In this document: one piece after another, positions 15,320 to 23,758 of the stretch
Numbering within the stretch: the stretch's first letter is position 1
Layout: each line of letters opens with the position of its first letter
Assembly (NCBI RefSeq): GCF_000020125.1
Contig: NC_010676.1
Coordinates: forward strand, 2,418,001-2,482,000
Direction: 5' to 3'
Length of the DNA stretch: 64,000 nt
Source: Paraburkholderia phytofirmans PsJN
GTDB lineage: Bacteria > Pseudomonadota > Gammaproteobacteria > Burkholderiales > Burkholderiaceae
The notes under the pieces: model-generated
Told to the model about the DNA's origin: nothing
Databases searched by the model: none
What the model saw: the letters and a program-made list of their open reading frames with translations, nothing else
Position numbers and translations under genes: made by a program

Positions 15320-16798
15320 CTATGCGGCAATACCTTGCGTGACGGGTGCCGCGCAAACCGCCTCGCGCTCTTGTACGTCGGATGCAATGGTCGTGATTGG
15401 CGTAGCCATCTTCGCCAGCGGTAGGCGCACCACGAAATTCGAGCCGCAGCCCAGTCCCCCGGAAAACGCCTCAACGGTGCCACCATGGCTCGCGACGATA
15501 TCGCGTACCACCGCCAACCCGAGTCCATGCCCACTCGTGCCCAATGCGCGACCCACAAGCCCGCGCGCGTAGGGCTTGAAGATGGTCGCAAGCTCGCCCG
15601 GCGCGATGCCGATGCCTTCGTCGCTCACGCTGATATAGCAGTAACGCCCGGCGCGTGACGCCGTTACCTTGATCGCGTCCGCAGCAGCCGAATATTTGAG
15701 CGCGTTGACCAGAAGATTGACGAACACCTGGGTCAGCTTGCCGAAGTCGCCGTGCACCGGCAACGGCGCGTCGCTTACCGTCAGTTGAATCGGCGCGTGA
15801 TCTGGCGCGCCCGCTTCGGCTACCTGCACACAATGCGCGAGCAGATCGCCAATATCGACCGATGCGGGGTTTTCAACCGTTCTCTCGCGCGACACACATG
15901 CCGGCGCGTCCGGCGCCGTATGAGCGGAACCAGCGAAACCGTCGAACCCGGCATCGTCCGGCGCCATCAATTGCTGGGCCAATTGGCCGAGCAGGTTTGC
16001 CTGCCGCGAGAGCAGAAGCGCATAGCGCGTCAACTGTTCATCATTGCCGTACTGCGTGTTCAACAAACGCGCAAGCAGGCCGAGCGGCGTGATTGCATTG
16101 CGGATTTCGTGGCCTATTGTTGCACCGATCGAGGCTTGTTTCGTTTCATCGCTACGCTCGGCAATAGCGGCGACGTTCTCCGAACGTTGCACACTCTGCC
16201 CGCTAACGTGCCCGCGCGAATGCCCGGAAGTCTCGACGCGCGGCGCTTCGATCTTCGCATCGTGCAGGCGCTCGATGTCCCGCGCTTGCGCAGTGCGAAG
16301 CTTCTGCACGCAGTACGTGCACAAACCGATGATCGGCCGCGCAGCAAGCTTTTCCTTCAGCGAGGCCTCGTAGTCGAGCAGCGCAACCCAGTCGGTGGTT
16401 TCGTTGCAAACGGCATCGCCGGCCACTCGCAATCCTTCGAAGCCTCGCCCCAGCGCTTCGTTGATCGCCGTCGACCACAAGCCCACGGTGGCGCCACCGT
16501 TGAAGCCCGTTTTGGGCGAGGCGTAAATCTGCGCGCCGTCGAGAATCTGCAATTGGCCTGCATCGATATATTCCGCGAGTGCGGGCGCGGTTCGCGTGAG
16601 CATATAGCGGGCTTTGTCGGGTCCCAGCAGCGCGGGCGCGACCCACACGGCCGCTTCGCGATTGGCGAGTCCGGCATGCAGAAAGTCCGCGGTGACGCTG
16701 AGCAATTCGCTACGCGATTCGTAGAAGTGACACAGATGAGAGCCCCAGGAGAGGGCGCCAAGCGCTGGAAAACCGCTGTTACGAGGTCCGGTGGTCAT
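15320..16798 (-). CDS. MEDS-domain sensor histidine kinase
   Basis: 492 residues from the ATG at 16798. The N-terminal about 190 residues match the MEDS (DcmR-like) sensory domain: HLCHFYESRSELLSV, then GDAVCNETTDW and a CTYC pair. A linker leads to a histidine kinase core with the H-box GHEIRNAITPLG, N-box NLLVNALKYS, DEGIGIAP and GHGLGLAV. No membrane segment is visible, so it should be cytoplasmic. No response regulator gene is adjacent. MEDS domains are associated with sensing small carbon or hydrocarbon-type signals; the ligand here is unknown. Confidence 0.88.
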   Translation of the reverse strand: MTTGPRNSGFPALGALSWGSHLCHFYESRSELLSVTADFLHAGLANREAAVWVAPALLGPDKARYMLTRTAPALAEYIDAGQLQILDGAQIYASPKTGFNGGATVGLWSTAINEALGRGFEGLRVAGDAVCNETTDWVALLDYEASLKEKLAARPIIGLCTYCVQKLRTAQARDIERLHDAKIEAPRVETSGHSRGHVSGQSVQRSENVAAIAERSDETKQASIGATIGHEIRNAITPLGLLARLLNTQYGNDEQLTRYALLLSRQANLLGQLAQQLMAPDDAGFDGFAGSAHTAPDAPACVSRERTVENPASVDIGDLLAHCVQVAEAGAPDHAPIQLTVSDAPLPVHGDFGKLTQVFVNLLVNALKYSAAADAIKVTASRAGRYCYISVSDEGIGIAPGELATIFKPYARGLVGRALGTSGHGLGLAVVRDIVASHGGTVEAFSGGLGCGSNFVVRLPLAKMATPITTIASDVQEREAVCAAPVTQGIAA

Positions 16799-17116
16799 CG
16801 TTTCCCTGAAAGTGCGTGGGTCAAGAACCACAGTCGCGCCAGGGTTTAACGATGTCCCGCGCGCTCGAATATAAATGTCACGGCACCTGCCGCGTCGATC
16901 CGCCGATCCTGTTGAAGGACTGGAAGCGGATCCACCGCATTGGTGCTCGATATTTGGGATTCAGCCAGGATTTAAAAGTACGCGAGGGTCGGTTTTGACA
17001 GAATAGATACTTTCCCCAGGCATGTTTTTTGGCACGAATGAGTGCTTGGTCACATGCCTGTCAATCGCGTTTGGTATATGACTTCAACACGGCGACTTCG
17101 AGACGGGTAAATGCGC
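16799..17116. other. intergenic region with a structured element
   Basis: About 320 bases between the leftward kinase gene and the end of the leftward methyltransferase gene. No supported gene. It contains a nested inverted repeat at 17017-17060. Confidence 0.6.
17017..17060. repeat. nested inverted repeat
   Basis: Outer 9-bp perfect arms CAGGCATGT (17017-17025) and ACATGCCTG (17052-17060) enclose inner GCAC / GTGC arms around a 6-base loop. It lies just downstream of the methyltransferase stop and could be a terminator, cruciform or binding site. Confidence 0.5.
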
Positions 17117-19126: not shown

Positions 19127-20182
19127 ATGCCCAACGAAACCCCGGAACCGCAAGCAATTTGTAATGACGTATCCCGCAGCGCGATCTTCATTGTCGCGAC
19201 CATCGCGAACGACCGCGATCAGGAGGCCAAGGTACGCGAATGGTGCGGCGACATTGCCGCCCTTGTGCGCGCGGTCGGCAAGCGTGTGCCTGCCGGCAAT
19301 CTGTCGTGCGTCTGCTCGTTCGGCTCCGACGCGTGGGACAGGCTGTTCGGCGCGCCGCGGCCCGCCCTTCTGCATCCGTTCCGCGACATCGGCGAAGGCG
19401 AGCGTCGCGCGTTGGGGACACCAGGCGATTTCCTGCTACACATTCGCGCCGAACACATGGATCTCTGTTTCGAGCTTGCCACGCAGTTGCTGGGCGCGCT
19501 CGGCGACGCGGTCACCGTGGTCGATGAAGTTCACGGGTTTCGCTACTTCGATATGCGCGACATGGTGGGCTTCGTCGACGGCACCGAGAACCCGACCGGG
19601 CGCGCCGCCGACGAATACACGCTCATCACCGAAGACCCCGGGTTCGAGGGCGGCAGCTATGTCCTCGTGCAAAAGTACTTGCACGACATGGACGGTTGGA
19701 ATGCGCTTTCCGTCGAGACACAGGAGCGCATTATCGGTCGCAAGAAATTATCCGACGTCGAACTCGACGCGGCGATTAAACCGTCGTCGTCGCACAGCTC
19801 GCTGACCACGATCACCGAAAACGGCAAGGAAGTGAAGATCTTGCGCGACAACATGCCGTTCGGCCGCCTGGGCGCGGCCGAATTCGGCACCTACTTTATC
19901 GGCTATGCGCGTTCGCCCGCGCCGATCGAGCAGATGCTGGAGAACATGTTCATCGGGCGCCCGCCGGGCAACTACGACCGGCTGCTCGACTACAGCCGCG
20001 CCGTCACGGGCGGCCTGTTCTTCGTGCCGTCGGCCACCTTGCTCGAGGAACTCGCGGACCGCGATCCGCCGAGCGTCACGGCCGCCATCGAAACTCATTC
20101 CGAACCGTCTTCGCCCGCCGAGCCGCGCCACGACGGCTCGCTGAATATTGGCTCTCTCAAGGGAATCTCCCAACATGAATAA
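19127..20182 (+). CDS. Dyp-type peroxidase, encapsulin cargo
   Basis: 351 residues from the ATG at 19127, chosen because homologues begin near PQAICNDVSRSAIF; an ATG at 19076 is possible. The heme pocket of a B-type dye-decolorizing peroxidase is complete: GFVDGTENP with distal Asp151, SSSHSSL with proximal His223 and ILRDNMPFG with Arg240. After the enzyme fold a proline/glutamate-rich linker ends in DGSLNIGSLKG, the known pattern of the cargo-loading peptide that binds the inside of family 1 encapsulin shells. The shell gene overlaps the stop by 8 bases. The enzyme would be packaged and use hydrogen peroxide. Confidence 0.93.
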   Translation: MPNETPEPQAICNDVSRSAIFIVATIANDRDQEAKVREWCGDIAALVRAVGKRVPAGNLSCVCSFGSDAWDRLFGAPRPALLHPFRDIGEGERRALGTPGDFLLHIRAEHMDLCFELATQLLGALGDAVTVVDEVHGFRYFDMRDMVGFVDGTENPTGRAADEYTLITEDPGFEGGSYVLVQKYLHDMDGWNALSVETQERIIGRKKLSDVELDAAIKPSSSHSSLTTITENGKEVKILRDNMPFGRLGAAEFGTYFIGYARSPAPIEQMLENMFIGRPPGNYDRLLDYSRAVTGGLFFVPSATLLEELADRDPPSVTAAIETHSEPSSPAEPRHDGSLNIGSLKGISQHE

Positions 20183-20977
20183 TCTGCATCGCGAGCTCGC
20201 CCCAATTCCAGCGCCGCCTGGTCGCAGATCGAAAACGAAGTGGCGCGCACCTTCAAACGCAGCGTAGCCGGCCGTCGCGTGGTCGACGTCGAGGGTCCGG
20301 GCGGAACGGAGTTGTCCGGCGTCGGCACGGGGCATCAGACCGCGATTGCCGCGCCTCAACAAGGCGTCGTGGCCAGGCTCGCGGAGGTCAAGCGCCTGGT
20401 CGAGTTCACCGTGCCGTTCGAATTGCAGCGCGAGGCGATCGACAGCGTGCTGCGCGGCGCGAACGACGCCGACTGGCAGCCCGCCAAAGATGCAGCGAAA
20501 GAGCTCGCCTATGCCGAAGATCGCGCGATCTTCGACGGCTATCAGGCAGCGGGGATCGGCGGGATTCGCGAAGGCTCGTCGAATGCGCCGCTCGCGCTGC
20601 CCGCCGACATCGGCGATTATCCGCACGCAATCGGCAATGCGCTGGAAGAGCTACGGCTCGCCGGCGTGGACGGTCCTTATTCCGTGCTGCTCGGCGCCGA
20701 CGCCTACACGGCGCTCAGCGAGGCACGCGACCAGGGTTATCCGGTGATCGAGCACATCAAGCGGATCGTGAACGGCGACATCATCTGGGCACCCGCGCTG
20801 ACCGGCGGCAGCGTGCTCTCCACGCGAGGCGGCGACTTCGAGTTACACCTCGGCGAAGACCTGTCGATCGGCTATCTCAGCCACACCGACTCAGTAGTGC
20901 GCCTCTATTTGCGCGAGACGCTGACATTCCTGATGTTGACGAGCGAAGCCTCGGTGTCGTTGACGCTCGCTGAATAA
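20175..20977 (+). CDS. family 1 encapsulin nanocompartment shell protein, frameshifted near the start
   Basis: The ATG at 20175 overlaps the peroxidase stop. Eleven codons (MNNLHRELAPI) match the family start, but the frame then reaches a stop after 30 codons. Adding one base at about 20207/20208 (ATTCC read as ATTTCC) restores SSAAWSQIENEVARTFKRS and a continuous HK97-fold protein to 20977: GRRVVDVEGPGG, EFTVPFEL, then GGDFELHLGEDLSIGY, about 267 residues in all. As written, only a GTG at 20240 could start the remaining 245 residues, losing the N-terminal helix that lines the inner shell surface and binds cargo. It may be a sequencing error, a true mutation or slippage. A LysR gene converges downstream. 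Confidence 0.85.
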
Positions 20978-20995: not shown

Positions 20996-21985
20996 TCAGG
21001 CACGCAACGACTGCTGCGGCAGCGCGGAGTCGACGTCCTCAGCCAGCACTTCGAGGCCGCGGGCCATTTTTCCGCATTCGACGTGCACTCTCTCGAGCAT
21101 TGCCGGCGTGCACTGCTTCAACATCGTCACGATCAGGCGTACCCGCGGCGGCATGGGACGTTGCGCCTGAATCAGTATATTGACGTCGAAGGGCAGCGCC
21201 TCGAATTGCGGCAACAACCGAACCAACCGGCCGTCCGCGAACGCTTCGACGCACGCCGGCTCTTCCAGCACGCCAATGCCCGCACCCGCCACGATCATTT
21301 CATACATGGGCCGCCAATGACTGGTCTTCACGGCGGTACGGATGGGGGCGCTCTCGACGACGCTCGCCTGGTGCCTGAGAGGCAACTGGTCCGTGCCGAA
21401 CGTACCCTGCATCCGAATGAACGGATGGTTGATCAGATCGGACGGCTCGTCGATCGACCCGTGCCGGCTCAGGTAGCCCGGCGCCGCAACGAGCACGCGC
21501 CCGACCTGCCCGAGTTGACGGGCGATGAACGCTCCCTCTCCGAGTTGCCCGAGACGAAAGGAAACGTCCACGCCTTCCGTCACGAGATCGACGATCCGGT
21601 CGTTCAGCACCAGTTCCAGATCGAGTTGCGGATAGGCCGCGCGTACGAGCGTCAACGCCTGCGGTACGACCGTCTCGCCGAAGCAGTGAGGCGCCGCGAT
21701 GCGGACCGTGCCTCTGAGCGCCTGTTCGTCGTTCGACACATCGGCAATGGTCTGCTCGACGGCGCTCAGAATCCTCTTGCTACGCTCATAGAAGGTCACG
21801 CCTTCGGGCGTGCACTTGAACGCGCGTGCGCTACGCAGCAAAAGCCGGCAACCCAGGTACTTCTCGAGCCGCTCGATGCGTTCGCTCGCGGCGGGCTGCC
21901 CGATATTCAGATCCCTGGCCGCGCTGGAAATGCTCTCGCGCTCCACCACTCTCACGTAAATGCGCATGGCTTCGAGCAGATTCAT
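20996..21985 (-). CDS. LysR family transcriptional regulator
   Basis: 329 residues. The helix-turn-helix ESISSAARDLNIGQPAASERIERLEKYLG lies at residues 17-45, then a substrate-binding domain from about residue 90 with VRIAAPHCFGETVV. It resembles the CrgA/DmlR-like group, which often regulates a nearby oxidoreductase. It converges on the encapsulin gene with an 18-base gap and has a 345-base upstream region shared with the divergent MocR gene. The target is not clear. Confidence 0.9.
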   Translation of the reverse strand: MNLLEAMRIYVRVVERESISSAARDLNIGQPAASERIERLEKYLGCRLLLRSARAFKCTPEGVTFYERSKRILSAVEQTIADVSNDEQALRGTVRIAAPHCFGETVVPQALTLVRAAYPQLDLELVLNDRIVDLVTEGVDVSFRLGQLGEGAFIARQLGQVGRVLVAAPGYLSRHGSIDEPSDLINHPFIRMQGTFGTDQLPLRHQASVVESAPIRTAVKTSHWRPMYEMIVAGAGIGVLEEPACVEAFADGRLVRLLPQFEALPFDVNILIQAQRPMPPRVRLIVTMLKQCTPAMLERVHVECGKMARGLEVLAEDVDSALPQQSLRA

Positions 21986-22330: not shown

Positions 22331-23758
22331 ATGAATCTCTATGAGAAGCTTGCAGACGACATCGAAAAGCTGATCCGGCAAGGCGTGTACGGCCACGGCG
22401 AACGCCTGCCATCAGTGCGGCAAACCAGCCAGCAGCATCGGATCAGCGTCACCACGGTCATTCGCGCCTACTTGTTGCTCGAAAGCCGGGGCTTGCTCAC
22501 CAGCAGGCCGCAGTCCGGCTATTTCGTCAATTTTCGCGGCGACGAAGGCGTGCGGAAGTCGCTCGAACTGCGGCCATCTAAACCGATCCCGATTTCGTCG
22601 CCAGTCGATGTCAGCCGGCTAGTGCTTTCCACGCTGCGCTCGATCGGTGTCGACGATGCGGTGCCGCTCGGCTCGCCCTACCCTGACGCGAGCCTGTTTC
22701 CTTTCGAGAAGCTCAACCGCTACGCTTACGACGCGGGACGAGACAAGACACGCTGGGGCGTGACCGATGCGCTGCCGCCTGGCACGGCGAGACTGGTGCG
22801 CCAGATTGCGCGCCGCTACCTCGAGAACGGCATGGCGGTCGATCCGAATGAGATCGTCATCACGGTCGGCGCGACCGAGGCGATCAATCTGTGCCTGCAG
22901 GCCGTCGCGAAGCCAGGCGATACGATCGCCGTCGAGTCGCCCACGTTCTACGCGATGCTGCACGCGATCGAGCGGATGGGCATGAAGGCGATCGAGGTGT
23001 CCACGCATCCTGAACACGGCATCGACATCGAAGCGCTTGCCGCGATCGTGGAATCGCAGACGGTCACCGCCTGCATGATCATGCCGAACTTCCAGAATCC
23101 GCTCGGGTTTCTGATGCCCGACGAGCGCAAGCGCGAGCTGGTCGAATACCTGACGAAACGGGACATACCGGTCATCGAGAACGGTGTCTACAACGAGCTG
23201 CACTTCGACAGCACCTATCCGAGCACGTTGAAGTCCTACGACACGAAGGGACTGGTGCTTCACTGCGCGTCGTTCTCGAAGACGCTGACGGCAGCCTACC
23301 GCATCGGCTGGGCAATGCCGGGCCGCTATCGCGATCAGGTCGAGAAACTCAAGTTTCTGAACACGCTGACCACACCGACGATTCCGCAACTGGCGATCGC
23401 GGAATTCCTCGAACGGGATGGTTACGAGCATCATCTGCGACGGGTTCGGAAAACCTACGCGCAGCAGGCTAACCTGATGAAGGCGATCGTCTCGCGCTTC
23501 TTTCCCGAAGGCACGCGCATGTCCAACCCCGCGGGCGGCTACGTGCTGTGGATCGAGTTGCCGTCCAGGGTCGACGCGATGCGGCTCTACAAGCTCGCAC
23601 TCGAGCAGGGCATCACCATCGGACCGGGCTACATGTTTTCGATCTCGGAGACGACCTTTCGAAACTTCATCCGCCTGAATTACAGCAGCCCCTGGTCGAG
23701 CGAAATCGAACAGGCCGTGATTACCGTGGGCAAGCTCGCCGCCCTGTGCGCCCGCTAG
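22331..23758 (+). CDS. MocR-type GntR/aminotransferase-fold regulator (or PLP aminotransferase)
   Basis: 475 residues. A short GntR winged helix (about residues 8-70, LPSVRQTSQQHRISVTTVIRAY) is fused to a fold type I aminotransferase domain: TEAINLCLQAV, MPNFQNPLGFLMPDERK, and the PLP lysine in SFSKTLTAAYRIGW at about residue 317. The aminotransferase part keeps the usual cofactor residues, so some catalytic activity cannot be excluded. It converges on the cytochrome bd operon with a 41-base gap and is divergent from LysR. Its regulated gene is not obvious. Confidence 0.88.
   Translation: MNLYEKLADDIEKLIRQGVYGHGERLPSVRQTSQQHRISVTTVIRAYLLLESRGLLTSRPQSGYFVNFRGDEGVRKSLELRPSKPIPISSPVDVSRLVLSTLRSIGVDDAVPLGSPYPDASLFPFEKLNRYAYDAGRDKTRWGVTDALPPGTARLVRQIARRYLENGMAVDPNEIVITVGATEAINLCLQAVAKPGDTIAVESPTFYAMLHAIERMGMKAIEVSTHPEHGIDIEALAAIVESQTVTACMIMPNFQNPLGFLMPDERKRELVEYLTKRDIPVIENGVYNELHFDSTYPSTLKSYDTKGLVLHCASFSKTLTAAYRIGWAMPGRYRDQVEKLKFLNTLTTPTIPQLAIAEFLERDGYEHHLRRVRKTYAQQANLMKAIVSRFFPEGTRMSNPAGGYVLWIELPSRVDAMRLYKLALEQGITIGPGYMFSISETTFRNFIRLNYSSPWSSEIEQAVITVGKLAALCAR

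What the first reader, a model, noticed from the sequence alone, without database searches (positions are those of the whole stretch)
19127..20977. DyP-encapsulin operon with a one-base frameshift in the shell gene
Seen: an intact B-type DyP peroxidase ends in a GSLNIGSLKG cargo-loading peptide and overlaps the encapsulin ATG by 8 bases. The shell frame then breaks about 30 bases after its start; one extra base at about 20207/20208 restores a full-length shell. Known: family 1 encapsulins use their N-terminal helix to hold such peptides. As written, the shell could only start at a GTG lacking that helix. Either the compartment is lost, the cargo is free, or slippage/alternative start makes two shell forms.
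Basis: partly seen in the sequence, partly recalled or inferred. Interest (0 to 1): 0.75.

Follow-up and report, generated by a model that had tools for sequence, protein, structure and literature searches.

The report
Encapsulin operon with frameshifted shell gene
An ordinary bacterial protein-cage operon (a peroxidase plus the shell that normally encloses it) carries a one-base frame break in its shell gene that was not seen in the relatives examined; it is most likely a recent loss of the cage or a sequence error, not a new mechanism.

Summary
An intact DyP peroxidase gene (19127-20182) ends in a GSLNIGSLKG cargo-loading peptide and overlaps the shell ATG (20175) by 8 bases. The shell frame breaks near 20205-20209 and ends after 30 codons; the rest of the shell is open and happens to lie in the DyP frame, behind the DyP stop. 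It is a family 1 DyP-encapsulin operon of a Paraburkholderia-like genome. In 46 of 46 other Burkholderiales loci examined the shell start is in frame. The break is the only convincing frameshift in this genome among 255 genes comparable with relative G008, so such errors are rare here, yet a lone error is not excluded. The shell body shows 9 synonymous and 1 replacement own-lineage codon changes, so a real lesion would be young. Two of the 46 relatives have a nonsense codon in the DyP instead, and 47 of 143 other genus genomes have no match, so loss or absence is common. Slippage or a functional internal start is not supported: no classical slippery heptamer, no repeat, and the GTG is a valine codon (not GTG in 4 of 46). 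One correction: a GTG-started shell would keep the published peptide-contact positions; it would lose the first half of the N-terminal helix.

The parts
19127..20182 (+). DyP-type peroxidase (cargo), intact, 351 aa
20135..20164 (+). C-terminal cargo-loading peptide GSLNIGSLKG
   Evidence: G[S/T]L.IGSLK in 35 of 35 Burkholderiales rows
20175..20182 (+). 8-base overlap of the DyP end with the shell ATG
   Evidence: same overlap of the DyP frame in 33 of 35 Burkholderiales rows, 4 bases in the other 2
20175..20267 (+). shell reading frame as written: 30 codons, then TAG
20205..20209 (+). place of the frame break (one base shorter than relatives)
20183..20977 (+). shell body, open, family 1 encapsulin (Linocin_M18); same frame as the DyP; first common start codon GTG 20240

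Best explanation
This is an ordinary family 1 DyP-encapsulin operon of Paraburkholderia whose shell gene has lost one base close to its start, in this lineage and recently. As written, ribosomes that enter at the coupled ATG (20175) stop after 30 codons, so no full shell is made and DyP is left as a free enzyme with an idle loading peptide. Shown: the frame break, its absence from the 46 relatives examined, the intact DyP and peptide, the purifying selection on the rest. Inferred: that the base is really missing in the organism, and that no shell is made.
For: 46 of 46 other Burkholderiales loci are in frame. No second encapsulin in the genome. Frameshift errors are rare in the assembly: of 409 gene-like ORFs of relative G008, 154 had no or a poor counterpart in the stretches taken and 255 were comparable; 12 gave frameshift-like splits; only in the encapsulin does the displaced part keep a coding pattern (0, 0, 3 mismatches at codon positions 1, 2, 3). 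Of the other 11, in 10 a methionine follows in the body frame of this genome, so the displaced part is an untranslated lead, and in 1 the gene is whole here and broken in G008. Decay of the operon is seen elsewhere: DyP nonsense codons in L002 (TGA) and L059 (TAG), 2 of 46 loci; 47 of 143 other genus genomes have no match and 2 only a fragment. The lost part tends to be more conserved: 13 of 22 positions invariant against 92 of 245 in the body, over 13 relatives (Fisher p 0.07, a tendency only).
Against: No other decay in the operon: at codons where three relatives agree, own-lineage changes in the shell body are 9 synonymous and 1 replacement (K40E), in the DyP (19181-20179) 11 and 3. No reads were available, so an error cannot be excluded. 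Other strains of the species could not be examined.
Confidence: 0.55

Rival explanations
1. Sequence or assembly error: the organism has an ordinary intact operon that makes DyP-loaded encapsulin.
For: Seen in one assembly only; the rest of the operon is under purifying selection; a synonymous difference lies directly beside the break (CCC in the three nearest relatives G008, L002 and L003, CCA here and in some others), which could mark a poor stretch.
Against: Only convincing frameshift of this genome among 255 comparable genes; no run longer than four equal bases at the site.
Confidence: 0.36
2. The shell is still made as an N-terminally shortened form from GTG 20240 (residue 23), and may still bind the DyP peptide.
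For: The peptide-contact positions listed for the M. tuberculosis complex all lie behind the GTG. N-terminal truncations of the capsid gene are mentioned for some Streptomyces and Mesorhizobium systems (PMC8346489, passage).
Against: No clear ribosome-binding site before the GTG (by eye); the codon is GTG in 42 of 46 relatives but GTC, GTA or GTT in 4; 13 of the 22 lost positions are invariant in 13 relatives. AlphaFold2 with 13 rows each: full-length G008 protein mean pLDDT 60.5 with a helix at 13-31, truncated form 43.7 with no such helix; both models are poor, so this is weak.
Confidence: 0.06
3. Recoding: -1 slippage near the break gives some full-length shell, or readthrough of the DyP stop gives a DyP-shell fusion.
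For: The shell body is in the DyP frame with one TAA between; a single-codon -1 re-pairing is possible at 20202 (CCA to CCC), before the break.
Against: No classical slippery heptamer, no repeat; 46 of 46 relatives need no shift; TAA is not a leaky stop as a rule (recalled).
Confidence: 0.03

Closest known systems
Family 1 (classical) DyP-encapsulin operons, e.g. Mycobacterium smegmatis (DyP 7BOK), Klebsiella pneumoniae (8U50 shell, 8U4Z DyP), Brevibacterium linens (7BCV shell)
   Same: DyP followed by the shell gene, C-terminal IGSLK-type peptide, shell body homologous over its whole length (organisms of these entries from PMC11676171)
   Different: the shell gene here is broken near its start
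N-terminally truncated family 1 capsid genes noted in Streptomyces and Mesorhizobium (PMC8346489, passage seen)
   Same: a shell gene without its first residues
   Different: those truncations are described as conserved; this one was found in one genome only and comes from a frame break

Membership tests
Family 1 DyP encapsulin | Shell of the Linocin_M18 / encap_f1 family | tested here: met
   body only:
Family 1 DyP encapsulin | DyP peroxidase cargo gene next to the shell gene | tested here: met
Family 1 DyP encapsulin | C-terminal cargo-loading peptide | tested here: met
   20135-20164
Family 1 DyP encapsulin | Elongated N-terminal helix forming part of the peptide pocket (PMC8346489) | tested here: not met
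   its first half is not encoded in frame behind a start in the window as written; encoded in 46 of 46 relatives
Family 1 DyP encapsulin | Icosahedral shell that holds the cargo | not testable with these tools
   needs expression and microscopy
Programmed -1 frameshift gene | Slippery heptamer X XXY YYZ in the zero frame | tested here: not met
Programmed -1 frameshift gene | Arrangement conserved in relatives | tested here: not met
   46 of 46 relatives are in frame without a shift

The most novel reading that the evidence does not exclude
The break is real and tolerated because some shell is still made: as a shortened form from GTG that keeps the peptide pocket, by rare slippage, or as a rare DyP-shell fusion by readthrough of the single stop between the two in-frame coding regions.
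Probability: 0.07. Interest if true: 0.5.

Novelty: new member of a known kind. Interest (0 to 1): 0.13.

Why it matters
If the base is really missing, the strain is a natural shell-minus case with an intact tagged DyP, useful for asking what encapsulation adds to the enzyme; two relatives (L002, L059) would be the reverse case, shell with broken cargo. Otherwise it is an annotation warning only.

Tried and rejected
Slippery-site and repeat searches found nothing that would make the break programmed or phase-variable. The idea that the cargo pocket is lost with a GTG start was rejected on the published contact list. A backup encapsulin was sought and not found; two further DyP genes exist in the genome, neither ending in the loading peptide. 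A gap count from plain blastn was not usable because indels were split and was replaced by the gene-level test. The second 200-kb piece taken to widen that test was mostly not syntenic with G008 and added few genes, so a third piece was anchored on another DyP. The gene-level test also showed in-frame stops in this genome in 2 of 123 and 11 of 132 ORFs compared, many within about 30 codons of the ORF start but some interior (for example codon 123 of 374); these were not followed up. The reverse test (own genes against G008) gave 22 splits and 15 genes with stops among 257 comparable genes; these concern G008 and were not examined further, apart from one gene met in the forward test that is broken in G008. 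The AlphaFold models were too poor to search with. The promoter scan gave one match upstream (0.4 expected) and one terminator-like site inside the DyP gene (2.2 expected). Paper searches: encapsulin with frameshift, pseudogene, Paraburkholderia, N-terminal truncation terms, Burkholderia and dye-decolorizing peroxidase, peptide and helix terms: listings; none of the titles or abstract starts shown is about a frameshifted encapsulin, and this covers only the open library. Passages of PMC8346489, passages of PMC11676171 and its section 3.5 whole were seen.

Full report
What is there. The window lies at 2418001-2482000 of contig C1 of an 8.2-Mb, 3-contig genome; the closest named loci are Paraburkholderia. 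A 351-residue DyP (19127-20182; Pfam Dyp_perox_N and Dyp_perox_C; among the best solved relatives are encapsulin-associated DyPs) carries GSLNIGSLKG near its end. Its last 8 bases hold the start of an encapsulin shell gene. The shell frame from that ATG gives 30 codons and a TAG at 20265-20267. The remaining shell, 20183-20977, is open and is a clear family 1 encapsulin. It is the only Linocin_M18 match in the genome.

Relatives. The scan of named genomes gave 45 loci, and the genus search put out 30 loci, one of them the window's own; many are the same contigs. In 46 of 46 the shell starts 22 codons before the valine at window 20240 and is in frame; the 11 loci outside Burkholderiales are in frame too. 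In 33 of 35 rows examined the DyP stop overlaps the shell start by 8 bases, in 2 by 4; the loading peptide G[S/T]L.IGSLK is present in 35 of 35. The base-by-base view of 35 relatives shows the window one base shorter in a stretch of about five bases and otherwise much alike.

Genus-wide, 97 of 144 genomes (this one included) have a match to the shell body. Of the other 143, 94 have a full-length match in an open frame of at least 271 residues, 2 only a fragment (G139, G143), and 47 none. Some of the 94 are only about 70% identical and may belong to other encapsulin types; this was not tested, and neither was whether the 47 lost the gene or never had it.

Is it an error? Three 200-kb pieces of this genome were compared with pieces of the nearest relative found, G008 (mostly 90-94% nucleotide identity where aligned); the second piece had little in common. 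Of 409 gene-like ORFs of G008, 154 had no or a poor counterpart there and were dropped; 255 were comparable, over about 91,000 codons. Twelve gave frameshift-like splits. By codon position only the encapsulin start keeps a clear coding pattern (0, 0, 3 mismatches); one other was unclear (1, 1, 4) and two had only 5 or 6 mismatches. Reading the junctions of the other 11 shows a methionine in the body frame soon after the split in 10, so the displaced part is an untranslated lead; in the last one the gene is whole here and broken in G008. So frameshift errors are rare in this assembly, but one lone error cannot be excluded; I could not see reads or other strains. Displaced pieces under 12 residues would have been missed.

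Is the rest decaying? At codons where G008, L002 and L003 agree, the shell body has 9 synonymous and 1 replacement change on this lineage, the DyP 11 and 3. A lesion, if real, is young. Single lesions of the operon are seen elsewhere: the DyP of L002 (Paraburkholderia sp. BL25I1N1) has an in-frame TGA and that of L059 (G007) a TAG, both with intact shells.

What would the pieces do? The published M. tuberculosis complex lists peptide contacts at residues 24-39, 229 and 230, and 202 in one peptide; it cites alanine tests in Klebsiella in which the hydrophobic, glycine, serine and lysine residues of the peptide, and shell R34, were needed (PMC11676171 section 3.5). The window's peptide has these residues. 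A product from GTG 20240 would begin at residue 23 and keep the listed positions, 8 of 10 identical, the others I31 to V and V230 to L. It would lose residues 1-22. In the full-length G008 protein a helix is predicted at 13-31; in the truncated form it is not, but both models are poor.

Recoding. Return to the body frame needs a -1 shift. No X XXY YYZ heptamer lies in the 30-codon frame, and no tandem repeat around it. The body is in the DyP frame, so readthrough of TAA 20180-20182 would make a fusion, but nothing else speaks for it.

Verdict. A known kind of operon with a frame break found in this genome only: a recent loss (0.55) or an error (0.36), with about 0.09 left for a shortened or recoded shell.

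Noticed in passing
L002 and L059 (DyP genes): In-frame nonsense codons (TGA, TAG; 313 and 233 codons before the DyP stop) in the cargo gene of two relatives with intact shells: cargo-minus counterparts of this operon.
   Followed up: partly
L004 and L016 (Paraburkholderia sp. BCC1884): Two DyP-encapsulin operons, both without stops, on one contig of one genome.
   Followed up: no
L099 and L098 (same genome as the window, C1:1916049 and C1:944162): Two further DyP-type peroxidases without a cargo-loading peptide; the one in L098 has a twin-arginine-like leader by eye. A family search of G008 found only two DyP genes there, the operon's and one more.
   Followed up: partly
window 15320-16831, strand -: Histidine-kinase-like protein with a MEDS sensory domain.
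   Followed up: no
window 20996-21985 (-) and 22331-23758 (+): A LysR-type regulator and a GntR/aminotransferase (MocR-like) regulator lie downstream of the operon.
   Followed up: no
G008:C2, ORF at about 2163068-2164228 (in L134): A gene that is whole in the window's genome, with a substrate-binding-protein look by eye, is frame-broken near its start in G008.
   Followed up: no
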